Positions 5,215-48,475 of a stretch of 64,000 nucleotides of DNA are shown here, piece by piece. The notes below the pieces were generated by a model. The model was given only the letters and a program-made list of their open reading frames with translations, was not told where the DNA came from and did not search any database. Each line of letters starts with the position of its first letter. Position 1 is the first letter of the stretch. A program made the translations under genes and the position numbers. Source of the DNA: Neelides folsomi (taxonomy: Eukaryota; Arthropoda; Collembola; Neelipleona; Neelidae); contig JAQGBZ010000098.1 of the NCBI GenBank assembly GCA_034687125.1, positions 124,001 to 188,000 of the forward strand, read 5' to 3'.

Positions 5215-6249
5215 GATTTCGAAAATTGGAATAATTCAAGATTAAAATATAGTGTTGGATCTGTTGAATGTTGAACTTCTGAAGGATGGATGCAAGAAGG
5301 ATGATTTTCGTTGGCTTACACCTGTAACAATTATAAACATTAATATATTTAACAATGGGTAAGAATTATTACAAAAATTAATTAAAATCTAAACTATCGA
5401 ATATATTATTACCAATTCCCAATGAATAATATTCAATTATCAGTTATCAGTATCAATACTCACATTCAATACTTATGTCAAGCATATTAAATGTAACATC
5501 TTACAATTGAAATAAAAAATGCAGAAAATGGAAAATGGCAAAAAGTTTTATTTTCCTCAATACTTACCAACTTCTGGGATATTTCAGATTCAATGTTGAA
5601 AAATCATGAAGCTGAATTGAACTAATTGAGATAATTCGATGACATTTAAAATGGAAACTGGAAGTGCCTTTATAGTTTTACTTTTGCTGTCTTCCCTCTC
5701 ACTTGCGATCAGACAGATCTTACAAAAATTAATTCTTTCAGGTGCTGAATTGAAGTCGATTGCGCACATCAAAATTGATCGTATGGGGCTTAATGATGCT
5801 CGTGTAGTTAAATCTTTCTATAAAATGCCTTTTGTCTTGCATTTAGCAAGATTCTGCGAAGCATGCTCAATACAATGCCGCTTCTTCGGCCGCCTGTATG
5901 ACTGTATGTATTTATTATAATAAAAAGTAAAAGTAGAGTTTTTTTTAAAGTTCCTAACTATCAAGATTGATTGACTTAACTAACCATTAGTTAAGAACTT
6001 AAGACCATTTAACTTGCCATTAATATCGTCAACCATTAAGGATAATTGTGTGTTTATAAGAAACACGCGACACATGATTAATTGAAGAAGTTACAAAAGG
6101 AATACGGAACGCTCGGAATATTACTATTAATGTAAATAATTATTTTAATTTTATATTATAAAATAAAGAACTACAATATGATTAAAATTATATAACATCA
6201 TTATATCATTACTTGAGCTGATTATTTTAAAATAATACCTTTTCAGAAA
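5215..6249. promoter_or_regulatory. Head-to-head promoter region of WDR37 and PPIG
   Basis: About 1 kb separates the divergent start codons of WDR37 (5214, minus) and the cyclophilin (6250, plus). Both genes probably have a non-coding first exon here. On the minus strand a TTGTTACAG acceptor precedes 5321. On the plus strand CCTTTTCAG ends at 6246, only three bases before the PPIG ATG. The middle (about 5580-5920) is less AT-rich, with a GC-rich knot at about 5878-5892 (CGCTTCTTCGGCCGCC), a plausible start-site zone. The two opposing open frames in that patch (5590-5772 minus, 5639-5920 plus) show no family and are treated as fortuitous. Confidence 0.5.
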
Positions 6250-28400: not shown

Positions 28401-31400
28401 GTAATGAGAAATGAAATGTATCAAATATGTGGAAAAGGAGAGCCTTGACATCGAGCTTGGGTGACAGGGCGAAATATGTAGTAAAGGCTGAAGGAGTGAT
28501 AGTATGTATAATGTACACATACTCTTTTAGAGTATTTTCCTTCGGCTCAATATTCCTCATATTGGATCTTGGATCCCTCGTGAATCCCTTCTTAGTCTTA
28601 CATCATAAAAGATCAGGTCTTGTTGAAAAAAGGAATTTTGCGCTCAGCTTCACTAACCCCAGTTTTTATTATATAGAGCGTTAAAATGGATTTTGTACTG
28701 TTGGATCCATCCGCCTGTAGGCTCAAATTGAGGACCTTTCAAAATCTCTGACTTGTGAGTGTTCTGAATGACCATATGACTTTATGGGCTTGTAGCTCAA
28801 CGTAGAGGAAAATTGAAATTTGAACTGCGGTCACATTATTTTCTCTCCGTAAGTGGAAACGATGATGGGCGTAGTTTAAACCCCAAGAGACTTCAACTTT
28901 TCTGAAGCTGGACTCTTAAATAAATGACGGGATTGTGTCCAGAGCTCTCGAGAGGAAAAGTGAAAAAAAGTTTTTTTGACTACAAATAAGAGTGCGGATC
29001 TACTGAAGAAGCTCGACACAATCGGTCCTATTATGCCGCCCAACGGTCTCTCAATTGACTTCCTAAATTCCCTTTTCACTTACCCAAATCCCTGGGTTTT
29101 GGACCAAGGGCTGAAACCCGGGATTGACTCCCCCATTTAATTCTTGTCTAGAGGGGCGGAGGAGAAGAAAAATAGTTAATTCTAATTGTTTCAGCCATTG
29201 AGCGGTTACTCTTCTGTAGTTTGTCTTTAGAGGAAACAGTCGAAGCTCGGGGAAGGGCAGTAAATCCTTGGTGACTTTCCTCTACTACCAGAAGATTGAG
29301 AACATGAATTGGCTCGGGCAGTATCGATTTCTTCTAAAAGAGTGAAATAAAACAAGAGAGAGAAAAAGGGTCCTGGCCCGAGGATGGATTGCTCTACTGA
29401 CTCTCCTCTTGGATCTCGAGAGATACGTATTGGCTATAGTTAGGTGTATATTAAACTCAATGCGAGACTCCCACTTTTCTCTTCGCCAGCTCCGTTCCAA
29501 GCCAAACTTTGGTGATTCAACTTTTCCGCCCCAAATTAGACTTATATCCGGTTGACTGGACAATTTTCAGTTATTAGATTAAATTGGATCAGAAGCTCCT
29601 TCTTAGTAATGCTCCTTGAGCAATATTCTCTATATTAAAGCCTTCAATCTCTCAAATTCTTTGCCCTCCACATTCCCTTTTGCTCCTCATAAACTAATTA
29701 TCTTTTACTCGTGTGGGCTAATTTAATCATCTCCGTTTGATTTAATTATATGCGTTTAACCCGATTAGCTAGACTCTCCCTTTTCGCCTTATGGTAAATA
29801 TCAATTTTGTAGAATTGGCTATTTATGTTTTGATTGTGAGTTATTCGATCTCTTTTTTATTGCCCTCATTCAGCACGAGAAGAATAAAGTGTAAAAATGT
29901 CATTAACGAGCGAGTTGACAAATTTTTCCCTAATTCAACCTATGGTTATTTGAGCATTCTTCATGCAAATTCAATGCCAAGGAACGTGAGAGCTAAGATT
30001 AATAACTGTTTTGTTTCTTTCCTTGCCGCTCCGACGACTTGCTATTCCAAAGATTCCCTTGTAACAGTCACTTCAATTTTTCATACTACCAACCAGTGTT
30101 TTACTCTTTATTGATTTTACATCAAAATTCACATTTAACGACATTTATTTATATTCCTTCCTTTTCCCATTTTTCAACATTTTACATCCACTTTGGAGAG
30201 TGTACAAGTTCTAAAATTAATAAGCTTTAAAAGTCTACCAGCATTATTGATTGAACTTTATGATTATGACTGAATGAATTTACTTTAATGTTAGTTCATA
30301 AATAAGTTTATGGATTAGTTAAAAAATATTTTTTATTATTTAACTAATATCAATGCCGTCGTGATCTTAAAATTATTCTCTCCCACAAAATACCTGAAAA
30401 GTGCTAATTGTAATAAATAATAAATATGGTGTGTACATTATACATTCTCTCATTTACTTCAATTCGAATGACATGAGAGGAATATCCGCATTTTTTATTT
30501 ATGATGGGCCTGTTTCGTTGCACAATCGCGGGGAGAAAAGTGGTTCTTGCAATTGAAAATAGAATTGAGGTAAGTGAAAGACACGCAATTTTTTCCTGGG
30601 TTTGAAAAATGAATTGGACTATTATCTGTTTGATATATGAATGTGGATGTAAAATGTGAAAAGAATATTTTCTATAGATCTAAATTTAGAGGTTTTTATC
30701 TTCTGGGCTCCTCCGACTCCGTTGATGTGGTTCAGTTTTAATTCGGTTGAAGTTGAAGAAAAAGAGTAATATCCCTCTGAGGTTTCCCTATCTTAACTTT
30801 TAAGATGAATGTACAGAGCACTTCTATAGTTTGGCAAAAGAACAAGTAATTTTATTTTTGTCAGTGATAGAAACTGAAGAGTGGACGTGTTCTTCCTTTA
30901 CACCTCTTTCTTGACTATAAGAGAGGTTGAGAATTTCGTGGCCATTTTTTCAAGAACACTCGGGCCATATAATAAAAGGCCTCGTTTTTTAATCTCTCTC
31001 CCCAAGTTCTTGTGTTTGGACCGCGGGAGAGAGGTGGGAGGAGTGGATTCCAGGCCACTCTTTTAGATATAATAAAATTTGTTTATCAAACCCATGGAGG
31101 GCATAGGAAATATTTTGTACATTACTCCGATGATTAAGCTTTTCTCCCTCTCATCAACCGTCGGTTCATATATATATTTACATCCCTTCCCCTCCTCTGT
31201 GAGTCGTTCTTTTTTTTTCAATTTTCTACCCAGGATTTGTTTATTTTTATTGAAGAGAAAAAGATTTGTTTTAAAATGGATCTTCTTCTTTTACGACCAG
31301 CTCCAAATAATGGTTCCCCTTCTCAGCTCAACTTCTAAATGGGATATGAGGATGAAAATTTCCAGTTTCTCTTTATTGTTGTTTATTGAATTGTCGCCGT

Positions 31401-34400
31401 CGTTTTGTCTTCAACGTTTGATGGAGAGCCAAGCAATTTACGATTGATTTCATTGGCACTCAAACCAATCCGACGCCGATCTGAGCGGCTCATTGAGATT
31501 TAACTCGGTAGAAGTTCCGTTCCCTGGTCCATTCAAAGACTCCATCTTCCTTGAAGGAAATATCTCTGAGGAATATTCATGATTTCTCGAATGATATTAT
31601 TTATTTATAGAGCAAGCAATTTTCCTTCAAGAGCCTCACCAGCTCGTTGGGTTCCTCGGGAATTGAGGAACCTCTCAGCTTCCTTGACGCCCTCCACCCA
31701 AGAAATGAGCCAGCGAGGAATCTATTTTTCACAGCCAAGTTTCCTTTATTCTAATTCCTCTGGAAGCTCTTTCCCAACCAATGGCCCTCATTCACCCACT
31801 GTTTATTTAACGTGATAGGGAGACGGGAGGAAGTTATGATCTATGGAAATGAGTGAATAATCTCAACCAACTTTCCAAGGAATTGAGAAACGTCCGAAGT
31901 TAAGGATGTCCCTTCTTCGGAAAAGAGAAATGTATAAAAAGGAAAAGTTAATTTCCTCTGCAGGAGATTCCTTTAGCGTAATGAAGGAGCAAAACAAAGT
32001 GAGAAAAGTTTCTCGGGGCAGAGCTTGACTTTGGCAAATCGTTTTGAGTGTAAACTTGAAGGGAGCAAGACAAATAAATACAGAACTCCTCTCTTGTATT
32101 GTAAATTGGTTCGAAGGGAGGAGGGAAGTGTATATGTGTTCAAGTCGTATAAATTTCGTGTGAATTGCAAAAGATGAGTGTTTGAAGGGAATCAGGGTGG
32201 AGAAAAGGTTATCCTATAGGGATGGATGGATCAAAAAAGATTCTTGTCTCGGTTGATGTAGAACCCGAGTTAAATGGGAAAGGTTCTCAAGGGATTTGAT
32301 CCTACAGCTCAAGTGAGACATGGCTTCTCTTCTCCCGTATAAACTCCCTGAGCTTCCGTCTGTACTTGTTGTTCTTCCGTCGGAATCCCCGCATCTCGCT
32401 TAGAAGATTGCCTTATAACGGAGATTTGTGGAGGTAGGATGTGAGTGTCGATTTGCCATAAAGATCACTAGCGATTTGTCCCAAGAGCCTCCCGTGGGAA
32501 TCTTCCGACTTGTGACTTGATCCTCCGCCGGGGAATTGCCTGCTCTTTGCCTTATTCCATTCTCCGCCGACCCTTCCCATATTTCTTGATAACTTAATTA
32601 TCTCTCATTCCACACTTTATGCACTCGGGAAATAATTAGGAGCCGGTTCGGAGAACCCGGACAATGCCAGACCCACACACATTATTTATTGTTTAAAGGA
32701 GGCTCCTATTGTACATTAAAGGTGGTTTGAGAATAATAGAGAACCTCTCACACTCTGCTTCGCGACCCCTTTTTCCCTCTTCCGTTCTCTTCCAATGACT
32801 GTAACTTGATTTTATATGAAATATGCAAGATGGTTGAGAAAATGTTTTCCACGTCTTTAGGATTCTATAACTGGGTTGTTTATGAGCCTTTCGGCTTGAA
32901 ACTTAAAGAGCTCATCCTCGAGTTTTGCTAAATAGAGTCGTCTCATTTGCAAATTGAAACCAAATTTGGCTAATCCCCACAAAGGACTTTATTCAACTCG
33001 ACAAATTCCATAGTTTTGATCAAGCCGTTTGAAACTTGGCTCAAATGCTTTCATTAGCATATAACTTAACAAAGTTATTATGGGTATGAGAAATGTATTC
33101 GGCTAGCTTATGCCATCAATAGGAAAATGAAAATATTTGAAAGGCAGTCGAGGAGAAGAAGAAAAAAATATTTGGAAATGATTGGTGAGAGATGAAATGG
33201 GTTGGTTAAATATAGCTCTAAATCTTTTATTTATTGAAAACCATCTAAGCGGAAATTGTTGAGGGTAGTCGGATAAGAAGAAGAGAAGATGGGAAGAAAA
33301 GTAGTTTGGTTGTGAGGTAATATTTTTAAAACATGGAGGTGGGTGCCAATGGAATGGGATTTCGGATTGAAAGTTATAATAGATGAAGGAATCAAAAGGG
33401 TCGGCATCGCCTCTCCACATTGAGAGAAACTGACATTTGGCCAATAACATAGAAAAAATGATGTGATATAAATGAAAAGGAGATAGGGAGTTATGTTTGC
33501 TTCGTTTTCACTAGGTCTGCTCCTCCCTCCGATCTCTCTCAGCCTTCCTTTTTATCTTTGCTGAAAAATGGAGCGTTGAAAAAATATTTTGGCATGAAAT
33601 ACTACGTTTACCAATTTGTAATGGTATAATCCACAAAAGCCAAGGGGAAGACAGTTGACTTGTTTCTATTGGAATGGATGGATTTTACATGGTTGATGAG
33701 TGGTTTGAATCTGGTTATGGTGAATCGGGCGACGGGTCCCAAGTTGATGCCTAGTGGGACACGACCTTCCGACAGCATCCCATAAGGGACTCATTTGTGG
33801 CCGTTGAATTTTTTGCTCAGACCCTTTGGGTGATCTCCATTGAAGGAAGAAAATAACGGATCAATTTTCAATATTAAATGTCTTTCTCGCGTCCCTCTGC
33901 CCAAGAGTGCCTTGTCGGATGGTTGAATTAGAACTTCCTTTCCCTCGACTCCTCTAATTGCAAATACATGGACATCAATAATAACAAGGGCAGTCAATGC
34001 TTAATCTCAACTCTCATCGGACGCATTGAAATCCTCGTAAATAATCACTTGAGGATCGAGAATGATGCGAACATTATAGACGAGAGTTCATGGCCTAAAC
34101 TCAGCACATGACTATCACAATATAAAGATTCATTTAGTTTCCACTTATGAATATGAACTATAATGCATGTCTACTACGTAATATAATTTTACATATAGAG
34201 ATAATATACTTGTATGTAGGGTGTGTATAAAATAGCCTAAGTTTGAGAGCATTAGTGAAAGAGAGAGGAGAGGAGAGATTTAAGATATGGAAAGGTACTT
34301 CTTGTGTCAACCACCCACGCCTCCTTCCTGTCCTCGTCTCAGTTTCCCGTTCTCCTTCTCTCTCTCTCCCCTTCAACTTGGGATGACGAGGAAGAGGGTT

Positions 34401-37400
34401 TAAAGATCTCTGTGAGCCCTTGAGGAATTGAAGAAGGAGGTTGAGATTTCTTTGTCTCCTCTTCCTCCGTCCCCCGAAAGTGGATGGTTTCAAATTTCAT
34501 GAGGGTAAATTATTGCTCCGCGTGTGTGTGTACCCTGTTTGGAGTGATTCGGATAAATAACTGCATCCTCAATGATCAATGCCCATGTTATGACATTGAA
34601 TACTTGAGAGAATTCCCTTGCTCCTTTCACGACATCGCACGGGAGAAGTGGTGATCTTGGACAAGCTTTTAGTCAAATCCTTCATCCAGTCTATTTAATA
34701 TTTACTTCGCACCTTTTCATTCCTCTGGGGGGAAATATTGAAGAGGGCCAATCTCTCAAGTTTGACTTTTTGCCATTGAAAACTGGGACAGTAAGTGGGG
34801 TGAATGAGCAATTATTCCGCCAATTAGTGCCAATTATGGTGAATAACGTGGGAAATAACCGGAGGATCAATTGAGTAACATGTGTCTGGCAGGTGGCAGG
34901 GACACGTGTCTTCTCTCCATCCTCAACGTGTGGCCGACCAAAAAGTCGGTGAAAGTTAAGATATGTTTGCTATTCACCCACCCGAACCGAAAGAGCATTA
35001 GGGGAGACAATGAGGGTGAAGAATGGGGTCCTTATTATTTGTGGAATTCATATGGTTTACCCCAATTATTTGACCACTCTTCTCCTTTCCTCCATTTAAG
35101 GATCTTTTCTGTCCTCTCGGGGGACACTTGAAATTTGGAAGTTTGGACTCTTGTAAGAACATTGTATGTTTATTTTAGTAAATAGCGTCTTGAACTGTAT
35201 AGGATTACGTTTTTATTGCTAAAGGTTAAGCGCCCTTCTTTTATTTCCCTGTTCCTACTTACATACTTCTTGGTACCATATGTGAGCTCTCACACCCATA
35301 CGGTCGAGCGGACGTCGTTTCCAATTCACTTCCGGTATCCCTCTCATAATTGTAATACGGTTTTAAGCTCTCATTTGTGTCAAGGACGGGGTTCAATTTA
35401 CAGATCGACACGCTCCCTGAAAATCTCAGAGTTCCTTCGTGTTCTTTCCAATCACTCTCCACAGCCGCCCTTTATTTCATGTCTGTGCTTTATATTTTAC
35501 CAAGCTTACACAGTTCCTGGATCTCCTTTCAATTCCCTGTGCACTTTTATTGGGTGAAGACATTGTGCTCATGTTTCATCACCCTGGAATATCCATAATG
35601 CATTTTGAGAACTGACCAAACCGAGTGTTTTCTTTTTCTAAGTTGTAATAATACCAAGAGGGATTTTGGGTCACAAATATGAGCATGATCTGCTAAAGTA
35701 TTTATGACATTGCTTTGATGATTGAAGACTTTCGACTTTGGGTTTTGTCTGAATGAACTTCTGGTTTTGTCCTTTTCCCCATTTTTCTTTGGTTGACGGC
35801 GCAATATTGGAAATTGGGAAAGGGGAACTTGACTTATGCAAAATAAGACTTTATAACCCCTGGATCTTGTATGAAGATTTAAATGTAGGATAAAAGATAT
35901 GTAGATATAAAAGGGGGTTGGGATCTATGTAGGACTCAATCAATCCATTTTACAAGTTGAACCATTAAAAAATTTAATAACAGCTCAAGAGTCCCATTCA
36001 CAAAGACAATTTGTCAAGATTTATGAAGCTGAACCGCTCGGTTATGGCCCTATTAGAATGCAAGCAATATGGCATTGTCTGAGGAGGGCGGAAGGAGCCT
36101 CCTTCCCTTCCCGCTTAAATAAAGGCGCAAAAAGGAGGGGAAAAGCCAATTTTGCGAATTGATATTGTGTAAGTTGTAAAGGGCCGAGTGAAGGAGGAGG
36201 GGGGAAATGACTCCCGAATGAAGCTAAGACCCGACTTTCCCGGTCCTCCCGCTTTCTCTCCTTGACTCTCTTCCTACACGACCCATCCTCCGCAATCCAT
36301 TACAGCCTATCCCTTCGCGCAAGTTGAATTCCCTCAGCTACACCCCGGATGAATTCCCTCCCATCATCAGGGAAATTCCCTATTTATTTATAAATGCTGC
36401 ACTTACGGAAATTCATGCCTATCACTTTTCACTCCATTGGCCCTGCCGCTCCGAATGTCTTCAAAGGAGGAAAGAAGGATAAAGTTAATTCAATCTTCCG
36501 AAAATGAGTGAACATAATATGCAGACAAGAGATGAGAAATCACATTGTCCTTAATATCTTTACCAGCTCCTTCAAGACTCATTTTCCTCCTCGGAAACCA
36601 AAAAATATGTTCGCCACCATGAGACTATTTGCTTATTTAACTTCCATTGTATTCCTTCTCCTATTGTGTCTGTAAATAATACGTGCCTAATTTTGGCTTC
36701 TGTATTTATGGCTTTCTCTCTCTCTCTCGCTCTTCATTTTAAACCGGGGGGTCTGGGGTTGGCCTGAACATTGAACCCCACAATTCTCTTTTATGCGGAA
36801 GAGTGGAAAAATAGCAAAATTGAACTAGTGCTAGTCTCAACTTCTGATCGGGAGAAATAGAGAGACCACAAGGTTTAATTGAATCCACGATTTGAGGAAT
36901 ACATAAAAACTTGAGATTCTCCAAGACGATTTTTTACCATTATTTGCACGATTGTTTGACTCGTCATCTTCTAGGTTTCATCTTGTCATTCATCACTTGA
37001 AGAAATTTGAGTCTTTTATCTCGCTCTGAGGAAGGAGAGTCCATCCCATATGCATAAGTATAATCGACACTTTGTCCTTTTCTTTACATCATCTCGTATC
37101 ACTCCTTGAATGACAGTGCAGAAGAGAACACACACGGATGAAAGTGTCACTTATGGATTATTGTAAAGCAAAGCCTTCTCTCTCACTCCTTCTTTCTTCT
37201 TCGTTTCTTTCCCACGACGGAATGGCCATTACCTCTCCCCCTAATGATTTTCTTGTATTTATTTAGTTTTACTGCTAGTTAAGTCGAATATTTGTCAAAG
37301 ACAATGAGTAGACAGGTTTGGGTGTAAATCACGGGGCGGCGTGGAGGCTCGTCATGAGAATCGGTGTTGTTGATGCAGGGTCGGATTTTATGGTTCGCCT

Positions 37401-40400
37401 CCTCTTCTTCCACACTTCCTCAACTCTCGAGGATGTGAACATGATACATGGAGGGTAAATTATGGAAAAGAGATCTTTGACTCTCTTCCTTCGTCATTCA
37501 AATACTTATATGGTTTGAGTATTATTTAATTTAAAAATCTATTTTTGTACCCCTCGACTGATGCTCACGGTGATGGAAAAGAATTTTTGAGAAAGCCAGA
37601 GGAAGGTTCTTTTGAGTGAATCCAAAGGAGGGGCTGGATGGAGTTTCTGGGCCGTCCTTCGTCAGCCCATACAACCCGATCTCTCCTCTTGTCATCATTT
37701 ATGAAGTCGGCAATTTTAATGAAATATGAATTCCTCATTAGACCTAGAAAGAGACGGGTTTGAGTCGGAGTGCTGGCCGGGGCTTGAGAGAAAGGATGAA
37801 GGAAACGAGATGAGGGCGTCACGCCAATGATTCTCATTCTACACACTTCTCTAATTGAAATAGTCATTAGTGGATATATTATTAGATTTGCGGCTTCTCA
37901 CTTATAAACTCAAGGCATAGAGTGGTAGATACATAATTGTACTCTTTTCCTAGCAGACTGCACAAGAACACATACATTATATCGACATATTCAAGCCTGC
38001 ATATTCCTATAGTCTATCATACTCAAATCCACTTAATTCACTCTCCACTCCCAAATTAATTTATCGAGGCTCGGAAACCCAGCAGGCATTTCAACTATAT
38101 AGGTAAAGATTTTTTAATCAGTCCAACGCCATTGCAACGGGATTATTTATTTATACATCATCTTTCTTTCACTTCATTTACTCAATGATTTTTTGAGGAG
38201 TATTTAAACAGCTTACTCTAAACCACAATTTTTGAGTTTATTTTTTAAAGTCCTATTAAATTATTAGCACATAAATACAAATCAATAGAATTCATAACAT
38301 GGTTATATGATACAAAGATATCATGAATTGTAACTACAATTGGATTTAATTACTTTTATATTTGAATGTCGGCCAACAAGAGATAAAATTGATAATGTAA
38401 ATGCAATGGCTCTTCCAATAAATGATAAAGCTTGTTAAGTAGGTTTGTTTTTAACGTATTTGTACTGCGTATTTATTTATATTGAAATAACTACTTATGT
38501 TGGATTATTTCACGTCATTTTGCAAGTTTGACTTCTTTATCATGTTGAGTTTAAAAGAGAAGCTCGAAATGTTCCAATGATGATAATGTTCTTTTGCGTA
38601 TGATGGGAAGATGAAATTGTCTAGAAGAGGGAGTGGAAGAATACATAAAGCATTAGAGCAAAAGCCTTGGTTATATTGTGTAGGTATACCCATTGTTGGC
38701 CATCTCTATCTGAAAGGATAATTGAAATAGATGCTCTGTGCCTGGGAATGAGTTTGAGCATAGGAGAATGAAGGTACGACTTGTTCTGCAAGCAGGTGAG
38801 GAAGGTTGGTAGAGAGCAATGGAAGGCGCCAAGCCTTCTGGACGGCTTCTCACCTAGGGACTCGTTGAGGTCAATGGGAGGCTCTTCATTCTTGAGTCAG
38901 GGAGTCATATAAATAAAGGAATGTCTCCCTTCTTCTCAACCTTTTATACCTTGTGAAACGATGGGGCCACCTTATTCGGGCAGGTTGGAATGAAGTTCCC
39001 AGAGCCGGCTCTCACCATTTCGACGAAATTCGAGATCTTGAGAATTTGAGAGTTGTGGAGAAGGGGAGTAAATGACCCGGTGTGGTTGCCACCCTTAATG
39101 CTTTTCCTCTATTTTTGAGTCGAGGGAAATTGGTTGTAAGGTCCTCTAATTTACTTTTAGTATGAAATGTGGGTTTGATAATGAATGAATGAGAGATAGA
39201 GATTAGGATGGAATAAGGGGAGTCAAAGGAGACCCAACGGGGGACCTCGGAACTCCATTCCTTGAATACTTTTTCCACTTCTCATTATATGGAAAGAGCT
39301 TTGGTCCGAATTATCTTGTTTCCATCCATTTCCTGCCCCTTCTCACATCAAGACATTTTGATCTCATTAGAAGAGGAGAGCTCTTCTCCCTCTTCTCCTT
39401 TTACTCCCCTAATTAATATTGGTTGCCGAAGCTTTTGACCTTATTTCCGTCCATTTCCTTGATTAAGCGAGACGATTCTGAGAGACTCTTCACATTTCGG
39501 CGCCCGACACACCCAGCCCTCTTCTCCTTAGAGACATTTAAAGAGGAATAATGGACTTAAACCTAATTATCCATTCTTCTATCCGAATCTATCTCTCCCA
39601 TTTATAGGAATTTGTGTCTTGGATTAACATCGGCGATTGATTTGGACCCATAGGGAGAGGATGCTTTTAAATAAATGTGGATCGGCATGTAAAGGACTCA
39701 CTTTAGTTAAGGATTAACTGGCTTTAATTTCCAGTAAAAAAATTCAAGGATAAACCATTTATTCGAGCGAAGGACGAGGAATTTGCATAGCTGTAGGAAG
39801 GAGGATATGATAGGGCCTTATTAAGAATTTACTCGTTTTGAGAGGAGAAGAGTCTCTTCCCAAATGGCTTCATCCATTTACCAAATAAAGCCTCTTTGGA
39901 AGACAGGCCATAAACTGAGCTTTTTATTGTAACCCCATGAGAGTGTTTGAAAGTTGAGGTGGGGGAGGGCGTTAGGAATTCTTTCTCCACTTTTGTCAAG
40001 CTTTTCTATTTGGAGAGCCTAAAGCCGCATTAAATTGTTTTTTGGGGTCAATCCATTTTGAGGTTTTACAATTATTTTGTCTGCCAGGTAGGGTAGTAAA
40101 TGAGCCGATGGCCAATGGATTTGAAGAAAGGAGTGAAGGGAACAAGGGAGCCCTCCCCTCCGAGTTGAGGCAGCTTGGAGCGAGAGAGAGAGCTTCCCTT
40201 TTTCCATGCTATCACGGGGTATGGGGAGGATATGTATAGCGTCAGGAAGGCATTGTTCAACTTTGCGTTATATCGTCCTGAGTGAGGAGGGTCCTTGGCC
40301 AGTAGAGAGATTCATGAGCATACCTTCGAAGAAATGCATACAAAGGAGGATAGGATAAGAGGATGGAATGAAAGTGCCTTGAGGGGAAAAGGCAGCAGAA

Positions 40401-43400
40401 TCCCCACCTTCGCTTCGAGCCCCTTGGAACTGCCAGACAGTTTGTTGCCTACAAGAATCCGGAGCTAAAATTACAAATTCTCTTTCCACGACTCATTTTG
40501 TTAATAAAGCAATAGTTCCTTTTTTCTCTTCGCCCTTTACTCGTCTGTCCGCCCACGTTTGGAGTTTTCCCAAGAGCGTCGGTGGAACTCAAGCAGTGTA
40601 TTGAGGAATTGGCAATTAATTCACAAAGTACAACTTACGTGTAAAAGAGGGGCGGCGGGTAAATGGCAGAGCCGAGAGCGAAGAGCCAACAAGTTCTGAA
40701 TTAAGAAAACTAGAAGAGTAACTTATTCAATTCTTCCCCTACTCTCCCAGAGTGAGTCGATTGAGGGATATTGGCATAGGGAGTGATAGGAGTCCACGAG
40801 AGAAGGTGTGTACTATCCAGGAGGATCGAGAACAGGTTGTTCAGCTCAAATGGAGGATGGCCTGGATATGCAAATCCCCCTATCTCGTCTTCACGAGCAA
40901 GTTCAGTGAGTTAAGCTCACATTTATTGTTCATTCAATAATAATATTATTATTCATAAAAGATCGTCAACAGTTGAGTAGTGTGAGAGCCGTGTCCTCAC
41001 GAGCAATATACCCCTTTGCTCTCTTAGTCAGTACATGGAGTTTGCAGTTATTCAAAATATATAAGTGCTAACTGTTGTGATCGTCAGACCATTTTGTGAT
41101 TGTGGAGAAGGATGATGAGAATGGTGGTTGTGAAAGAGTTTATAAGCATCATTGCCAATTGAGCGGGGTTTCAATTCATTCCCCATTTGGAATTTTAAAT
41201 AATAAATTGTGGGGCGGTTGGAGTGGCGACGTGCCAAAGTGTCTTCTAACTAGAGAGAGAGAGATTTGTCCAATACGAGTAAGGAGGGCGCAACAAGGCT
41301 TTAATCTAAATAGTAAATAAAGTGTCAATCATTTGAACCTCTTTATTTGCATAAAGTGAGGAATTGGAGAAGACATTTATTCCCATTTCCCTAATCTCAA
41401 CTGTTTGGAAAATATTCTCTTCATATGATTTTGAAATGTTGATGATGAGTCAATTGAACAGACTCTGTAAATAGTGAATTGGATTCGACTGACTCAATCA
41501 GAGAAGATTCTCCGATGAATGAATTGAAGAATTCGTATGCGAAGACTGAACTTTGACCCTTTATCATTCTGATTTGGTTGTAAAGATACTCATCCCTCTT
41601 GATAGCTTTACGCCTCAGATAAAGGGGAACGGGGCAAATAGTGGAAACATTGCTACGACAGACAAATACTCGTCTCCTTATCACAAATAGGGCTAATGTG
41701 GAGGTGAAGTTCTTGTCCATAGTGTTTTCACAATCCTGCCCTTATGTAAAAACTAGAACGTCCAGACAGAAAAAACTAATAATTGAAAAAAGAAGTATTG
41801 GAACATCGGGACAAAAAGTTTTTGTGAGGGCCAAAATGAAACGGTGGCACAATGAGGAGTATAAAAGTGAATCTTCGCCAAGGTGGACAAATTCAGAAAA
41901 CTCGGGGAATAGGAGTGAAACTCTTCGAAGGAAAATTCCTGAGAATCTTGGAACTCATAATGGGAAAACTCCAAACGGTCCGATGGGGATGACAGGAATG
42001 GGCGAAAATTGTCACTTTGGACCTTCTGGTCCTAATGATGGCCCATTTCGGAATAATTGGGGAACGAATACTTCTAATGGATCATCATCCTTCCCAAGGA
42101 ATAACTTCTTCCCAGAGTTTCACCAAAACAATAATCAAAATTTTATTCCAACCAATAATTATCACCCGTTGAAGAGAAAACTTCCATCGAGAGCTCAATC
42201 AGTAACCATTAATTTCTTATTTCGATCCATTTCTTATTCAATATTTCGTTTTTATTAATATTAGTTATAGTGAAACTTTAAATTGCCCTTATAAATTTGA
42301 ATGGGTGAGATATTGGAAATAGGGAGGTGGAAGAGGTGAGGGTTTAGGGATGCTTGCGAGCTGAATACCAATAGCTTATTTTATTTTCGCTTGAAAGGGT
42401 TAACAAATGTGGAACATATATTTGTCTACTCACTCGTCTCTCGACACTCGGAGTGAAGGAGAGAATTCCAATCCTTTCATCACCTTTGTTTTTTGGGTGT
42501 CATCCCAAAAGTATTTAGAGTGGAATTTCTTCGAATTTCTCATTCTGACAAGTGTACTCTACAATTAGAGAATAAGTTACCTCTCTTTTGTCAAATTGTA
42601 AGAATGTGTCTTGAAAGAATTCTGAATCATAATTAGATTAAAATTGGGATACCCTTCGAGATAAAAATGAGGAGGATGAAAAAACATGGAGGAGTGGAAA
42701 GGACCGGAGTAGTAAAAGTTTGAGCCTCCTAATGAATTGCACATTATTCGCCATTGCTTATTCAAAAAGTCCGGATTTGTAATTCAAGGAAAAAGGAAGG
42801 AGCAGAGCCGCGAGTCAAAATCACCTTTTAATGTAGAAAAAGTAGGAAATGATGATGAAGGAATGGAAAATGGTCTTGGTGACATACGGGAATTGGAGTC
42901 GGTTGAAGGAGCATGTGAAGTAGTTGGATGTTCTTTTCCTCCGATTTCCCTATCTTACAACTTGCTCCGCCACTCTCGACTCCACTGTTTGTTGGTTTAA
43001 TGAATTTTTAACTGCCTCTTTCTTTACATCGAGTTGTGATCGACTACATGGGGAGTTACATGGATGTAAAGAGAGGCATGGCCTTCTTCGTCAAATCCTC
43101 TCCCTTCAACTCTCCGAGGAACCGAAAAACAAACAAGAGGGCGGGAAGATTAATATTTCCTCTCTTAGATTAATAGGATTGTAGTCTTTCTTTTGAGTTG
43201 TTTCCTGTGTGGAGGAAGGAGGGCCAGGTGCGGTTGTTCCTTGTCAATCGTAGTAGGTCATTTACAATTGACTTATGCATTCATGGGACTGGTGTCCGAG
43301 GATGTAGGTGACGTTTGAAGAGTCGGTCACTTCCCCGATTCAATTATTGTCCACCCGAGACCCTTCGTGTGTTTTATGAGGCTTGTGGGTCTTTTCATGA

Positions 43401-46400
43401 ATTTTTCATTTTGAGAGACATCTGAGGAATCATAACGGCTGATTTATTCTCAGCGATTTTGAGCATTTTCCCTTCCAAGAGACCCGCTCTATTATTATGC
43501 ATTTCTCTTTAGTATATTTGAATTTGAGATTCAGGGCTGAGGGAGGATCTTCAGCAGTTTCATTTATAAAATGGGGTCCAATAAAGAATTCCGATCGAGG
43601 GCCGATATTAGAAGGCGAAATGAGAGAGGGTCTATTTATTTGATTTGATTTCTGGGAGGGCGCGAGACGAAGGGCCTCTTTGTGTCGCTTCGGAGGGCGG
43701 TTGAGAGCCGAGGCTTGAAATTGAAATCAGGGCATTTCTATGTATGTTATGTATGTATGAAGAATGGAAATGGAGGTAAGTTGGGTCGGAGCGGAGGCGG
43801 GAGAGAAAAATAAAATCGGGAGAAGTGATAGGGAGGAGGCAGGAAAAAGATAACAGAGTAGTTACTGGATCCGAGTGGAGAGAAGAAGAGGAGTAATATG
43901 AGCGCCGAGGGTTCCTCCACCAAGGAGCAGCAGGGTAGAACTCTCCTTGGCAGCATATGTGCGAAATGGCCAAACCTTTCCAATTGCAGGCCCTTACTCG
44001 CCCTAACTAGTAGACATTTCGAGGAGGTTGGAGAAGAAAAGTTCAAGTGGTGCATGTGGATCTTCTTCCTCTAACTTTGACGGTAGTCGGCGGCTCTGCG
44101 AACTCCCCTATTCCAAGGTATCTTGCCACTTCCCCGCCCGCGCTATAACTCCGAATATCCGAATGGATGGAAGGGGTCACATAATCCGGGAGGATATAAA
44201 TTGGGTGGTAAAAAATTGGGGAAAGCCATCGGTGACTGAGTAGACTTGACTTGACTCCTGAAGGGAAAAACTTGAGGACACATTTCCCCATCCCACTTCG
44301 TGGTCACGACTTTCAGTTCTTATTTGTCTTTCTCCGTGTCGGAGCTCCGAGCTCTGTCTCCCATCACTGGAATGTTCTGTGCGTACAACCCCGCGTTTTA
44401 CGGCGGCCTTTTCGGACGCTACCCGCTCGTGGTAAGTCTCTGGTCCTCACTTTTCGCTCCTGCCCATTAGGCGGATTCTGGTCAATAAGAGACCCGGGGA
44501 TTGTCATTATGAGCACCTGACTTGGGTCGCTTCTCCCACCTCTTGGATTTTGATTTACTTCGTCATTCATATGCAGCTCGCATACATTTGTAGATAAACT
44601 CTTCCACGTAGATTCCCCAACGGCTCCACCACTGCTAACTACCGACTCCATATGAGAATTAGGAAGGAGGCATAATTGTTATGATGAAGCTCGCCCTGCC
44701 GAGATTCCATTTCACCGACTCTCCAACTCTTAATTTGTTTAGGGCCGGTCGACGTAGAGAACTCATGAGATGAAATGTGTCTGATTAAATTTTAGGAGGC
44801 CGAGCCTCTCTTGCGGCCCTTTATTAAATAATATCCTCTTTCTGTTTCAGTTTGGTGCTGATGAGTTCCCTCAGGATTCTCCACGCTACGCGTCGCCGAA
44901 AGGATCTGGGATTTATCCGGAATCTTCCTATTTCATGGGTGAGTCTAATCCTTTTATTCCCTCACTCCTCCCCTTATAAATACGCTTTCCCATTCTTCTC
45001 TGCAGTTCCCTATTCCTTTCTGCCCCTTTTTGTTTTCCCTCCTATCTTTTTAATCGGTTCGGATCCAATGCCTCCTCTTTCATTCCTCTCTGAGAGGTCC
45101 GTCCTTTTGACATAAGCCTCTTTTTATCTCAACCCCCGGCCCCAATGCGCCCACTTTATAACCCAGAGATGTGAAATAGATGAAGTGGATCTCTCATGAG
45201 CTTTCGGCCTCATGAGGTAAAAACTGGCTCCTGTAAAGGGTGAGAATTGGAGTAAAATGTAATGGAAACTGCTACTACTTGGGAAAAGGGTGGAGGTGGA
45301 AGTGAGGCCGAGAAGTAATTGTATAATAGGGAACCGTTTATTTAGCCAGGCCTTTAATTTATTTACTGAGCTTGAGCTGAGAGAAGAAGGGGAGCTTGGG
45401 AGATTTAAGCAAAGGCTTGTTAAACGAGGAGACAAACGAAAGTAGATTTATGAGCTTAAATAAGCAGGGAATTCCCATGAATTGTTCTTGGATCTTGCTC
45501 ACTCATTCTTTAAGAAGCCTCCACAATTTAAGGAACGAAAGGGTTTCAATTCTAAATATAGCCCCTCTTCCACATCTCTCTACCCCTTCCATCATTTATA
45601 CTTTCATTGAGAAATTCAACCCTTCCTCATGTTCTCTGGGAGGAATTCGACTTTGGAATGATTTCGTATCACGCCTCGATGATAATGATGATGCTCGAGT
45701 AGATCCATGTACTTTAAGTCTTAATTCTCTTAATTATCATCAACCCGTTCCTCATTCGTATCTCTCATCCCTTCGCTTCTCTATTTGTGTATAATAAATA
45801 GTTTGACTTTCGCGTTCTTGGAGTTATTGAAAATGTGATGAAATTAACGGCGACTTATAACAAATTGTTCATTGTTCCAGAAGGCGGTGGCGGAGGTTCA
45901 GAATGGGGAAATGGAGGTCCAGTTTCTCAGATGGGCCCATCAGGCTACGCCTCCTACAATCCATCTATGATGCCATCACATTTGTCGCAATCATATCCAG
46001 GACAAGGGCAGGGCGGCCCTGGGTCAGGACTTCATATCCCATCCCATGACTCAATGGGTGGCTACGTCCACACTGGACTTCCCCCTAATGGGGACTCACC
46101 ACTCATTGCTTCTTCACTTCCTCCGATGTCAACATTTAGAGGAAGTCATGTGGGCCCAGGCGGGTCACAGTCCTCAGTCGCCAACAATACATCGAGTCCA
46201 ATCTACAATAACCACAGTCCAATCGCAGCTCCTCCGCCTCCAGGCCCAACTTCTGGTGACACCGTTGGGAAGGCCTTGGCTTCGGTGATCATTTTTCTCA
46301 CTCATAAAATTCTTGGCACATTTGTAGCGTGAGGTGTTTTGGAACGATGATTTTAATTTGTTTGTTTTGAATATTTTAGATATATACAACAGACCATAGT

Positions 46401-48475
46401 GCCAGTAGTTCGAGTCCATGCACCCCTGTCAACTCCCCTCCTCCCCTCACCTCAAGTGGCCAACAATGGGCGGGGAACCAGGGCGGTGTGGCTCCCTTCA
46501 CGCCAGCCAATCATCCACCAACATCCCCGGGATTTGGAGACCGGCACATGGTAATTTTATAAAGTCACTTGGCCAATTTTTACTTGTTTTTTGGCATTTT
46601 TCATATGATTTTTGCATATTGAATTGTTTAACCTCGTTTCTTATTTATTTGAATTATACTTCATTTGAATGTAAATTTTATGTTTTGTTGGTTTGATCAT
46701 TTTTGTAATATGTTGCTTTTTACTTTTTAAATGGTAGCCTGTACCAGAACAAGAACATATTGAAGATGTCATTGGTATTCTGCGAGATAACTCGGAGGTA
46801 TTTTTTTAATTGCGATTAATTTGCAACTTTTTTATCATTTCTTTTATACTAATCAAGTTTAATAACCATTTATGCTTATACTGACCCCGATTTTTTTCCT
46901 TTTTGTGTCATTGATGCGTGTATAGGTAATCAGTCGGATTATGAATCTGCAGGGATGTTCTCGAATGGAAGAGCGACTGGACGATGTGATCAATGTTTTG
47001 AGGAACCATGCGGAGAGTCCGCACCCGTCTTTCCATGGGATGACTCCCGTTCCCCCCCACCTGGCCAACCAGCAACCACATTCCAATGGTCTCCTCGGCT
47101 TCCCTCCACCACTCGAATCCCACCTTGTGAGTTCTCAAACCTACACATTTAACTTTAACTCAAACTCACACGTCCTGGATGATTTAATGGAATCCTTATT
47201 CTGTCTTTTTCATTGCAGAGTCCGCATGGTAATGGTACGCCACAAAATTATGGTCCAATCCCATCCCATTCGAGTAATCAGGACGGCGGAGATCCATTAA
47301 AGCTTGAAAGGGTCAACCCGCCATCCTCAGGAAAATCAAGTAATTATCTTTTCTAATTATAATGAATAAAAATGCAGTACCAAGGTTGTGGAAGTGAGAT
47401 AAAACACCTACATAAACTTGCTCTTGTACGTTGTTTCTTTTCTCTTTGATATTTATGTTGTCACACTTTGTAATGGTGACTTCTTCCGCACAACTTGTTT
47501 TGATAAGATAACTCTGTTTCTTTCCGCGGAATAATTTTCTCATAATAAGAAAAGAAAGGCGTATATTGTAATGGTTGATGAACCAGCTAATAAATAAACG
47601 TGGGTTATTTTACAGAAAAACGAAAGGACTTGAGCGGCATTGATGTTGACTCGAAGAGCGATCTACTTGGACTTGGATCTAATAACAGTAGCGCAAGCAC
47701 AACATCGTCCACCTCTTCTATTGGCCACAAAGGAGCTAAGCGTTCAAGGAGGTATATTTCGCAATTTATATAATTTCTTTTTTTTATCATACTGTTTTCA
47801 ATCCATAGTATTATATTTAATATTTTTATGAAATTGCAGAAGCAGTGGTGCAGACCACGATGACGATGATGATGGCGATCCAGATACTAAAGTCGTGAGA
47901 GAACGTGAGAGAAGACAAGCCAACAACGCTAGAGAAAGGTAAAATGGAAAAAAAATTAATAATTTAAAATAGCAATTGAAATTATTACTTGCGATGCATA
48001 ATTGCAATTAATTACTATTGGAAAATTCACATTGCTAATTTGTATTTTTTAATTTCAGGATTCGAATAAGAGACATTAATGAAGCTCTGAAGGAGCTTGG
48101 AAGAATGTGCATGCAGCATTTGAAATCCGACAAACCACAAACCAAACTGGGCATCTTAAATATGGCAGTTGAAGTAATCATGCAGCTCGAACAACAAGTC
48201 AGAGGTAAAAGTAATTCCTTTTCGATCTATTTGTTCGTATTTGCGTCATTACATTGAATTGAATTGATTGAATGAGGTTGTTGAATGGTTCTAAAACGAG
48301 CATTTTATTTACAGAGAGGAATCTGAATCCGAAAGCAGCTTGTTTGAAGCGACGGGAAGAGGAGAAGGCTGAGGACGGGCCGAAAATTCCTGGACACCCT
48401 TTGGGCCCTCCACCTCACATGGCAGCTCCCTTCCCCCCCATGGCTGTCCCTGTTAGCCACGCAGATTTTCAGTAG
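10461..48475 (+). CDS. da: Daughterless, class I bHLH (E protein)
   Basis: Long isoform exons: 10461-10542, 11190-11380, 12181-12228, 44851-44938, 45881-46284, 46380-46550, 46738-46797, 46926-47126, 47219-47339, 47616-47751, 47840-47938, 48059-48204 and 48315-48475. All junctions are GT-AG with consistent phase; the product is 635 aa. The N-terminus ([20 protein letters not shown]) is nearly identical to Drosophila Da. The body carries E-protein landmarks in order: [58 protein letters not shown] and KKRKD. The bHLH (about residues 520-575) contains [20 protein letters not shown] and [14 protein letters not shown], followed by the E-protein tail [20 protein letters not shown]. The protein dimerises with tissue-specific bHLH factors and binds CANNTG in neurogenesis and other fates. 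Intron 3 is 32.6 kb. Other N-termini may use the 44851 acceptor (separate entries). Confidence 0.96.
12229..16497 (+). other. da intron 3, first part
   Basis: Intronic sequence after the 48-base exon 3. It starts AT-rich and from about 12400 becomes visibly richer in G+C, with many GAGGAG/CCTCCT-type purine and pyrimidine tracts. The open frame at 12982-13362 (126 codons) has a Ser/Tyr/Thr-rich centre ([20 protein letters not shown]) but no recognised family and no convincing splice sites in a usable phase, so it is not called. A CASSTG E-box (CAGGTG) lies at 14244-14249. From about 16140 to 16300 there is a pyrimidine-rich stretch that follows a TATA-like sequence. Confidence 0.5.
16114..16120 (+). 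promoter_or_regulatory. TATA-box-like sequence in da intron 3
   Basis: The string CACTATATAGGG stands out in otherwise G+C-richer intron DNA. About 30 bp downstream begins a pyrimidine-rich tract suited to a start site. It lies about 380 bp before the candidate exon at 16498. Function is inference only: the intervening sequence contains several ATGs, and no transcript evidence is available. Confidence 0.25.
16498..16647 (+). CDS. Candidate alternative first exon of da (50 codons)
   Basis: An ATG in strong Kozak context (A at -3, G at +4) opens 50 codons that run in phase 0 to ATG|gtaatt at 16647/16648. Phase 0 is what the common da acceptor at 44851 requires. The peptide is rich in Phe, Pro, Ser and His (starts [15 protein letters not shown], includes [12 protein letters not shown]) and resembles activation-type sequence, but it matches no E-protein exon I know. 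A TATA-like element lies about 380 bp upstream. It could equally be a chance open frame: the frame continues 15 codons past the donor before its stop, and many such frames occur in this intron. Confidence 0.25.
18627..18633 (+). promoter_or_regulatory. TATA box candidate upstream of 19181 exon
   Basis: TATAAAA in the context AGAAGTTATAAAAACTGCAGTG follows a roughly 230-bp pyrimidine-rich stretch (about 18370-18600). It sits about 550 bp before the open exon candidate at 19181. If it is a promoter, transcription would start near 18657 and include a long leader. This is inference from motif and position only. Confidence 0.25.
19181..19483 (+). CDS. Candidate alternative 5' exon of da (101 codons)
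   Basis: An ATG in good context (CTTCCATGG) opens 101 codons that end in phase 0 at CACAG|gttaga. This fits the shared phase-0 acceptor at 44851. The frame opens slightly upstream at another ATG (19154), and an in-frame stop lies just before it, so the segment is more likely a first exon than an internal one. The peptide is Ser/Gly rich. It begins [18 protein letters not shown], in which LSDLxxxSA aligns without gaps to LSDLLDFSAMF of the vertebrate E-protein activation domain 1, although the LDFS core is not kept. It ends in a hydrophobic helix ([12 protein letters not shown]). Other frames are open across the same bases, so coding status is uncertain. Confidence 0.4.
26805..26823. repeat. 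(CT)n microsatellite
   Basis: An uninterrupted CT dinucleotide run of 19 bases inside da intron 3, within a longer pyrimidine-rich patch. Confidence 0.95.
34890..34908. promoter_or_regulatory. Paired CASSTG E-boxes in da intron
   Basis: CAGGTG at 34890-34895 and CACGTG at 34903-34908 lie 13 bp apart. The second sits in a 10-bp palindrome (GACACGTGTC). Both fit the CASSTG class preferred by Da-containing dimers. In Drosophila da is known to respond to its own product, so autoregulation is possible here, but two hexamers in 32 kb can also occur by chance. Confidence 0.25.
36715..36728. repeat. (TC)n microsatellite
   Basis: A 14-base TC dinucleotide run in da intron 3. Confidence 0.9.
41836..42201 (+). 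CDS. Candidate alternative 5' exon of da (122 codons)
   Basis: An ATG in good context (GCCAAAATGA) opens exactly 122 codons that end in phase 0 at CAATCA|gtaacc, matching the phase-0 acceptor at 44851. The frame is also open upstream to 41641, so it might instead be an internal exon; the only phase-0 acceptor found upstream (before 41770) is poor. The peptide is low in hydrophobics and rich in Asn, Gly, Pro, Phe and Ser ([25 protein letters not shown]), typical of transcription-factor activation regions. It ends in a basic patch ([16 protein letters not shown]) reminiscent of the NNPRRRPLHSS nuclear-localisation segment that precedes the same position in vertebrate TCF4. It could alternatively be a fortuitous open frame. 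Confidence 0.45.
42202..44371 (+). other. da intron 3, last part before the Alt exon
   Basis: Intronic, with no assignable coding sequence. The final 200 bp before 44372 are C+G-richer and hold an initiator-like motif. These bases are the likely promoter of the short da isoform. Confidence 0.45.
44313..44318 (+). promoter_or_regulatory. Initiator-like motif of short da isoform
   Basis: TCAGTT matches the arthropod initiator consensus TCA(G/T)T(C/T) and lies 57 bp before the ATG of the Alt-type first exon. No TATA box is seen about 30 bp upstream. A GGAGCT string at 44341-44346 resembles a downstream promoter element but is off the ideal spacing by one base and mismatched at one position. Start-site mapping would be needed to confirm it. 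Confidence 0.3.
44372..44431 (+). CDS. da: Alternative first exon of da (TCF4-A/HEB-Alt type)
   Basis: Twenty codons from ATG to GTG|gtaagt, a perfect donor, in phase 0. Splicing to 44851 is in frame and gives a 548-aa short isoform that lacks exons 1-3. The peptide begins [12 protein letters not shown] and joins to [16 protein letters not shown]. Vertebrate TCF4-A and TCF12/HEB-Alt begin MYCAY, have a short Tyr/Gly-rich segment and run into the same DSPxY(P/A)S block. Start motif, length, aromatic/Gly content, exon position and junction phase therefore all agree. A purine stands at -3 of the ATG. The exon has its own initiator-like motif upstream. In vertebrates this exon is driven by a separate internal promoter and yields the shorter E-protein form without activation domain 1; here the exon would likewise bypass the Da N-terminus. 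Confidence 0.82.
46738..46797 (+). CDS. da: da cassette exon, HEB-beta (ank-like) segment
   Basis: A 60-base exon, phase 0 on both sides, encoding [20 protein letters not shown]. It aligns with the vertebrate TCF12 ank-like insert around HEHLQDAMSFLKDVCE at the same place in the protein, just before RMEERLDD. Symmetric phase means that skipping it keeps the frame, so it is a good candidate for regulated inclusion. It also resembles the start of the next exon ([15 protein letters not shown]), as if the two arose by duplication. Confidence 0.75.
47840..48475 (+). CDS. da: da bHLH and C-terminal exons
   Basis: The last three exons encode the DNA-binding module. The first (47840-47938) carries an acidic run followed by the basic region start ([15 protein letters not shown]), the second (48059-48204) helix 1, loop and helix 2, and the third (48315-48475) the E-protein-specific extension [20 protein letters not shown] and a short Pro/Met/His-rich tail ending ADFQ. 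The two splice sites inside the bHLH region fall within the basic region and directly after helix 2. Compared with Drosophila Da the bHLH differs at very few positions (Gln for Thr in MCMxHLKS and VIMxLEQQ). Confidence 0.95.

What the first reader, a model, noticed from the sequence alone, without database searches (positions are those of the whole stretch)
44372..44431. An arthropod Daughterless gene with a vertebrate-type TCF4-A/HEB-Alt alternative first exon
The exon encodes [12 protein letters not shown]... and ends in phase 0 at a consensus donor. It is the nearest upstream coding exon to the acceptor at 44851, where the conserved DSPxY block begins. Vertebrate TCF4-A and HEB-Alt start MYCAY, are similarly short and Tyr/Gly-rich, and join at the same protein position in the same phase. 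Five matching properties make coincidence unlikely. Drosophila da is compact, and I know of no report of this exon in it. If real, the internal Alt promoter of E-protein genes is older than the split of arthropods and vertebrates and was lost in flies.
Basis: partly seen in the sequence, partly recalled or inferred. Interest (0 to 1): 0.9.

Follow-up and report, generated by a model that had tools for sequence, protein, structure and literature searches.

The report
Short-form first exon of Daughterless gene
An arthropod Daughterless-type gene carries, just upstream of its shared exons, a tiny alternative first exon that resembles the one used to make short TCF4 and HEB proteins in vertebrates, which fits an existing idea that this second start point is very old.

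Summary
Window 44372-44431 encodes [20 protein letters not shown] and ends in phase 0 at GTG|GTAAGT, 419 bp before the acceptor at 44851. The host gene is an E-protein gene with arthropod-type AD1 and bHLH, the only such locus found in its genome. The long form's modelled exon 2 also ends in phase 0, with a basic end, so both starts join 44851 in frame. TCF4 exon 10a has the same layout. M[FY]CAY occurs 11 times in the 75 Mb genome, and only this copy stays open to a splice donor. About 1e-4 such frames are expected in the intron. Beyond MxCAY the resemblance to recalled vertebrate Alt peptides is not significant, and YYY is absent. Transcription is untested. A sea urchin Alt form was published in 2016 (title seen); I recall its abstract as placing Alt in the bilaterian ancestor. 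Ten paper searches with capped listings showed no arthropod case. Mitochondrial gene order argues against a typical copepod. Verdict: a new, probably arthropod, member of a known kind.

The parts
10461..10542 (+). Canonical coding exon 1, [27 protein letters not shown] (AD1-type N-terminus), phase-1 donor CTG|gtaagc
   Evidence: 93% identity over 28 residues to recalled Drosophila Da N-terminus, E 2.7e-10 in own genome; sequence; borders
11190..11380 (+). Modelled canonical exon 2, [13 protein letters not shown]...[10 protein letters not shown], ends in phase 0 with a basic NLS-like stretch, donor GAT|gtaagt
   Evidence: good acceptor and donor and in-frame join to exon 1; codon score 14.8, not above the best minus-strand segment at 15.2, so the score alone does not prove it
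11381..44850 (+). 33.47 kb phase-0 intron of the canonical transcript in my model; holds the Alt exon; further small exons could have been missed
   Evidence: borders
43872..44371 (+). Candidate internal Alt promoter and 5' UTR: GC 0.502, TATAAAT at 44195, TCAGTT initiator-like at 44313, no ATG starting from 44168 to 44371
   Evidence: inference, no expression data; 28 TATAWAW matches occur in the intron, so the TATA alone is weak
44372..44431 (+). Alt first coding exon, [20 protein letters not shown], phase-0 donor GTG|gtaagt
   Evidence: no second copy found in the genome
44851..44938 (+). First shared exon (counterpart of TCF4 exon 10), [29 protein letters not shown], phase-0 acceptor
   Evidence: aligns to E2A 8ubk and to recalled TCF4 exon 10 (42 of 20000 shuffles)
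45881..46284 (+). Shared exon, [13 protein letters not shown]...[10 protein letters not shown]...[10 protein letters not shown]
46380..46550 (+). Shared exon, AD2 region [23 protein letters not shown]
46738..46797 (+). Candidate cassette or mutually exclusive exon [21 protein letters not shown], phase 0 on both sides
   Evidence: resembles start of next exon (1 of 20000 shuffles) and less so E2A (268 of 20000)
46953..47126 (+). Shared exon [23 protein letters not shown]... (conserved LDDAIHVLR helix)
47219..47339 (+). Shared exon
47616..47751 (+). Shared exon; holds basic stretches KSKKRKD (across the junction) and KGAKRSRR
47840..47938 (+). Shared exon, acidic stretch and basic region [14 protein letters not shown]
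48059..48204 (+). Shared exon, helix-loop-helix
   Evidence: Pfam PF00010 2.2e-12; PDB E2A and TCF4
48315..48475 (+). Last coding exon, [24 protein letters not shown]...ADFQ stop

Best explanation
The exon is an alternative first coding exon of this arthropod's E-protein gene (daughterless), homologous to the Alt exon of vertebrate TCF4 (exon 10a) and TCF12. A promoter inside the last part of the large canonical intron starts a transcript just upstream of 44372. It is spliced 44431|44851 in phase 0 and makes a 519-residue protein that keeps AD2 and the bHLH but lacks the N-terminal AD1 and the basic stretch that ends canonical exon 2. It would dimerise and bind E-boxes like the long form, but activate with one activation domain and be switched on by its own promoter in chosen cells. 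Shown here: the gene anatomy, reading frames, phases and rarity of the motif. Inferred: transcription, promoter use, common descent and function.
For: Start motif M[FY]CAY with an open frame into a consensus phase-0 donor, 1 of 11 genome sites, with 8.6e-5 expected in the intron. Same place as in vertebrates: immediately before the DSPxY exon. HEB's Alt exon lies between exons 8 and 9 and encodes 23 residues (PMC9385190, passages). TCF4 exons 10a-c lie in front of exon 10, and exons 8-9 encode an NLS (PMC3137626, passages). Mouse exon 10a coding coordinates span 69 bases if inclusive, that is 23 codons and phase 0 (PMC9666405, passages). The modelled canonical exon 2 ends in phase 0 with a basic KRKKD stretch, so both starts join 44851 in frame. 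It fits a first exon better than a cassette: of three upstream acceptors examined, the one with C at -3 (44317) gives 115 bases and a frame that hits stops at once (frame 2 of E10); the other two have G at -3. No ATG starts from 44168 to 44371. GC is high just upstream, 2 of 330 windows at or above it (windows overlap, so these may be the same stretch). A DNA search found the region once in the genome, so it is not a recognisable repeat.
Against: No RNA evidence could be examined. Only one species: no relative of the bHLH was found in viral contigs or genome contigs, and no animal genome collection was on hand. Similarity ends after five residues, and YYY is absent. The exon's codon score is near zero, 0.7 bits, as is that of canonical exon 1 (0.2), so this score cannot judge short exons. 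TATA and initiator-like sites are 118 bp apart, not the usual 30, and could be chance; CpG upstream is ordinary (180 of 330 windows at or above). The vertebrate Alt letters are recalled: my two versions differ at four places, whereas PMC9385190 says two and PMC3346973 says 80% identity. The significance estimate was made after the motif was noticed.
Confidence: 0.87

Rival explanations
1. Chance: an ATG frame in a long intron that happens to start MFCAY and run into a GTAAGT.
For: Similarity to vertebrate Alt is limited to five residues; tails score no better than shuffles. The motif occurs 11 times in the genome, about as often as chance, 7 for the reversed pattern. Codon score near zero.
Against: 8.6e-5 such frames expected in this intron; 0 of the other 10 genome sites reach a donor; it also sits next to the right acceptor in the right gene.
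Confidence: 0.06
2. The segment is an internal cassette exon of the canonical transcript rather than a first exon.
For: The frame is open upstream to about 44276, and acceptor-like AG sites precede 44317, 44345 and 44352.
Against: Inclusion from 44317 adds 115 bases and shifts E10 into a frame that reads WC and two stops; the in-frame acceptor (44345) has G at -3. The ATG opens exactly the conserved motif. Acceptors further upstream were not examined.
Confidence: 0.05
3. Independent origin: an arthropod alternative first exon that converged on MxCAY.
For: Tail unlike vertebrate Alt. Human TCF4 has many 5' exons, and five of the seven not conserved in mouse come from transposable elements (PMC3137626, passages).
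Against: Same motif, place and phase; a sea urchin Alt form bridges the gap (title only seen; content recalled).
Confidence: 0.05

Closest known systems
TCF4-A (E2-2Alt), exon 10a of vertebrate TCF4
   Same: Short first exon starting M-aromatic-CAY (letters recalled), just before the exon with the DSPxY block, phase 0 (69 coding bases in mouse), lacks AD1 and the exon 8-9 NLS, keeps AD2 and bHLH
   Different: 20 not 23 residues; no YYY; tail not similar; expression unknown here; two basic stretches remain downstream in this protein, so nuclear entry may not depend on a partner
HEBAlt of vertebrate TCF12
   Same: As above; [quoted passage not shown]
   Different: Its YYY motif, which raises activity in a JAK-dependent way, is absent here
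SpE-Alt, Alt form of the sea urchin E-protein (Schrankel et al. 2016, PMID 27265865)
   Same: An Alt form outside vertebrates; title seen in reference lists; name and content recalled
   Different: Paper not held, so its peptide and its list of species could not be compared
Drosophila daughterless
   Same: N-terminus 93% identical over 28 residues to a recalled sequence; [12 protein letters not shown] and KAEDGPK signatures (recalled)
   Different: da is described as having a single intron (PMC4736037, passage); I know of no Alt exon in it (recalled, not searched)

Membership tests
E-proteins (class I bHLH: Da, TCF3, TCF4, TCF12) | E-protein bHLH with conserved C-terminal extension | tested here: met
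   Pfam HLH 2.2e-12; E2A 8ubk E 2.1e-49 over query residues 22-486; only locus found in own genome at E <= 0.01
E-proteins (class I bHLH: Da, TCF3, TCF4, TCF12) | AD1-type N-terminus in the long form | tested here: met
   10461-10542 matches recalled Da N-terminus, 93% over 28
E-proteins (class I bHLH: Da, TCF3, TCF4, TCF12) | AD2 and LDDAIHVLR-type helix | tested here: met
   GKALASIY..DHS and [16 protein letters not shown] align to E2A
E-protein Alt first-exon isoforms (TCF4-A, HEBAlt, SpE-Alt) | Short first exon starting M[FY]CAY | tested here: met
   (vertebrate letters recalled)
E-protein Alt first-exon isoforms (TCF4-A, HEBAlt, SpE-Alt) | Lies in the intron just before the DSPxY exon and joins it in phase 0 | tested here: met
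   vertebrate layout
E-protein Alt first-exon isoforms (TCF4-A, HEBAlt, SpE-Alt) | Isoform lacks AD1 and the upstream NLS but keeps AD2 and bHLH | tested here: met
   predicted from anatomy only
E-protein Alt first-exon isoforms (TCF4-A, HEBAlt, SpE-Alt) | Own promoter and a spliced Alt transcript | not testable with these tools
   no RNA data; weak sequence hints only
Vertebrate-type Alt domain (full-length peptide similarity) | Alt peptide similar over its whole length | tested here: not met
   tails no better than shuffles. I take start motif, place and phase as defining the wider Alt class and the tail as variable between phyla; that is a judgement
YYY/JAK-regulated vertebrate Alt domain | YYY motif | tested here: not met
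   no YYY in the 20 residues

The most novel reading that the evidence does not exclude
The Alt start of E-protein genes is ancestral to bilaterians, was kept in the line leading to this pancrustacean and lost in flies; this would be the first arthropod example pointed out. It would mean that work done on single-form Drosophila Da misses half of the ancestral gene output.
Probability: 0.5. Interest if true: 0.5.

Novelty: new member of a known kind. Interest (0 to 1): 0.42.

Why it matters
It extends the two-start layout of vertebrate TCF4 and TCF12 to an arthropod, which supports an old, conserved second promoter rather than a vertebrate invention tied to T cells and brain. It also offers a gene in which to ask what the short E-protein form does, which Drosophila apparently cannot answer. 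The gain is incremental because a sea urchin Alt form is already in print.

Tried and rejected
ORF 41837-42201 (ends ...[10 protein letters not shown] before a GT in phase 0) looked at first like the upstream canonical exon. Its codon score is -87 bits over the whole stretch, although 41971-42045 inside it scores +14.3. Exon 2 at 11190-11380 scores 14.8, below the best minus-strand segment (15.2), but joins exon 1 in frame with good splice sites, so I preferred it. Missed small exons between 11380 and 44851 are possible.

A cassette-exon reading was weighed and put low.

Searches for relatives of the bHLH in viral contigs (23 stretches matched a pattern, none confirmed) and genome contigs (110, none confirmed) gave nothing. 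A PDB search with the E10-E12 stretch alone gave two unrelated weak hits. Pfam gave only HLH for the Alt form, nothing for the 19 kb ORF and one sub-threshold phage hit for the canonical N-terminus.

I made 10 paper searches. I looked at titles, term counts and abstract starts of the listed papers only: 30 of 77, 20 of 76, 20 of 322, 16 of 16, 20 of 62, 0 of 0, 15 of 27, 12 of 81, 5 of 5 and 0 of 0. None of the listed titles or abstract starts pointed to an arthropod Alt exon; several listed arthropod papers that mention daughterless (such as PMC4641368 and PMC6274879) were not opened. HEBAlt with sea urchin gave 0 papers and phrases for daughterless isoforms gave 0. The library lacks most subscription journals.

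I opened ten papers, in passages or single sections, none in full: PMC9385190, PMC3346973, PMC3137626, PMC6433000, PMC8199221, PMC4736037, PMC6783274, PMC5660111, PMC6494969, PMC9666405.

A first join of the exons had wrong borders and frameshifts; it was corrected. I fetched 200 kb of own genome and found 8 ORFs of 300 codons or more meant for codon training, but did not use them; the scores come from codons of this one gene against intron, so they are rough. My notebook count of the canonical protein as 591 residues was wrong; it is 590 (91 + 499).

Full report
At 44372-44431 the + strand reads [20 protein letters not shown], 20 codons, followed by GTAAGT in phase 0. The acceptor CAG at 44850 opens [17 protein letters not shown].... 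A DNA search with 44150-44850 finds only itself in the genome.

The gene is an E-protein gene. The window is bases 124001-188000 of contig C98 in a 75.1 Mb genome. A query made of the E-protein bHLH finds only this locus at E <= 0.01, 9 candidates scored. The rebuilt Alt protein of 519 residues hits Pfam HLH (2.2e-12) and E2A in the PDB (a 651-residue chain) over query residues 22-486 (E 2.1e-49), including the DSPxY block, the GKALASIY/DHS stretch and the LDDAIHVLR helix. A recalled Drosophila Da N-terminus matches window 10461-10544 at 93% over 28 residues. A codon-score scan suggested canonical exon 2 at 11190-11380, [11 protein letters not shown]...[10 protein letters not shown]. Its score, 14.8, is not above the best minus-strand segment (15.2), so the case for it rests on good splice sites and an in-frame join with exon 1. 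Joined, the canonical form is 590 residues with no internal stop. Its exon 2 ends in phase 0 at a basic stretch, as TCF4 exons 8-9 encode an NLS before exon 10 (PMC3137626, passages). The nearer ORF 41837-42201 scores -87 bits as a whole, with one sub-segment at +14.3, and is not an exon in my model.

Layout against vertebrates. HEB's Alt exon encodes 23 residues and sits between exons 8 and 9 (PMC9385190, passages; PMC3346973, section 3.5). TCF4 exons 10a-c sit in front of exon 10. The mouse exon 10a coding interval printed in PMC9666405 is 69 bases if inclusive, a multiple of three (passages). Here the exon is 60 bases, phase 0, in the intron just before the same block. Letters of the vertebrate Alt peptides are recalled; the passages I saw did not print them. 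My two recalled versions differ at four places, whereas says two and says 80% identity.

Chance. M[FY]CAY as DNA occurs 11 times in 75.1 Mb on both strands, against 7 for the pattern read backwards. So the motif alone is not enriched. Of the 11 sites, 1 keeps its frame open to a GTRAG donor, and that is this one (the same site appears there under three locus names). Inside the 33.47 kb intron, 29 ATG frames with 16 distinct donors reach a phase-0 GTRAG donor within 60 codons, 9 of them GTRAGT. The intron's own codon frequencies give 3.0e-6 for [FY]CAY next, so 8.6e-5 expected. This is computed after the motif was noticed, but the motif, gene and place were set by earlier vertebrate knowledge.

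Against the reading. By local alignment the whole peptide scores as high in 269 of 20000 shuffles against TCF4-A and 960 of 20000 against HEBAlt, while the parts after MxCAY do so in 10788 and 9736 of 20000. The YYY motif, which HEBAlt uses for JAK-dependent activity, is absent. The exon's own codon score is near zero, 0.7 bits; canonical exon 1 scores 0.2, so the score cannot judge short exons. Homology therefore rests on start motif, place and phase. Promoter hints are weak: a TATAAAT at 44195 and TCAGTT at 44313 are not at TATA-initiator spacing, and the intron holds 28 TATAWAW matches. The 500 bp before the ATG are high in G+C, 2 of 330 windows at or above them (windows overlap, so these may be the same stretch), but their CpG ratio is ordinary, 180 of 330 at or above.

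First exon or cassette. Of three upstream acceptors examined, the one with C at -3 (44317) would add 115 bases and push E10 into the frame that reads WC and two stops. The in-frame one (44345) and the third (44352) have G at -3. No ATG starts from 44168 to 44371. A first exon fits better.

How it would work (inference). An internal promoter makes a short E-protein that binds E-boxes through the shared bHLH, has AD2 but not AD1, and can be used in other cells than the long form. In human TCF4 the short forms lack AD1 and the NLS and enter nuclei with partners. Human TCF4-A can rescue nervous system development of da-null fly embryos (PMC4736037, passages). Here two basic stretches, KSKKRKD and KGAKRSRR, remain in the shared part, so the NLS analogy may fail.

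What is known. [quoted passage not shown] PMC6433000 uses it to say that non-gnathostome loci resemble HEB/E2-2. The paper itself is not held; I recall its abstract as placing the Alt transcript in the bilaterian ancestor. In 10 paper searches none of the listed titles and abstract starts pointed to an arthropod Alt exon, but most listings were capped, several arthropod papers were not opened, and most subscription papers are outside the library.

Which arthropod. Protein genes located were cox1, cox2, cox3 and cytb; one of the 22 tRNA calls was of unclear identity and trnN was not called. I recall this as the ancestral pancrustacean order. Recalled Drosophila COX1 is 83% identical with the invertebrate mitochondrial code. 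A hexapod or branchiopod is likelier than a copepod; this is recalled comparison, not a tree.

Noticed in passing
46738-46797 and 46953-47126: Exon X ([20 protein letters not shown]) resembles the start of the next exon ([19 protein letters not shown]; score reached by 1 of 20000 shuffles). Both are phase 0, so the conserved LDDAIHVLR helix of E-proteins may be duplicated as a cassette or mutually exclusive pair here.
   Followed up: partly
19154-19483: A 110-residue ORF on the same strand inside the big intron has the best coding score there (26.1 bits against 15.2 for the best minus-strand segment), ends at CAG|GTTAGA in phase 0, has no second copy found in the genome and no Pfam match. It could be a second alternative first exon or a nested gene.
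   Followed up: partly
   Followed up: partly
L038 (C20:97236-97481): Ubx-like homeodomain followed by QAIKELNEQEKQAQAAKVAAVVAAQQ, on a contig with four other Hox-like homeodomain matches.
   Followed up: no
3011-4525 (-) and 6217-8912 (+): Upstream neighbours: WD-repeat-like exons on the minus strand, and on the plus strand a cyclophilin-like exon followed by RS-rich exons (judged by eye).
   Followed up: no
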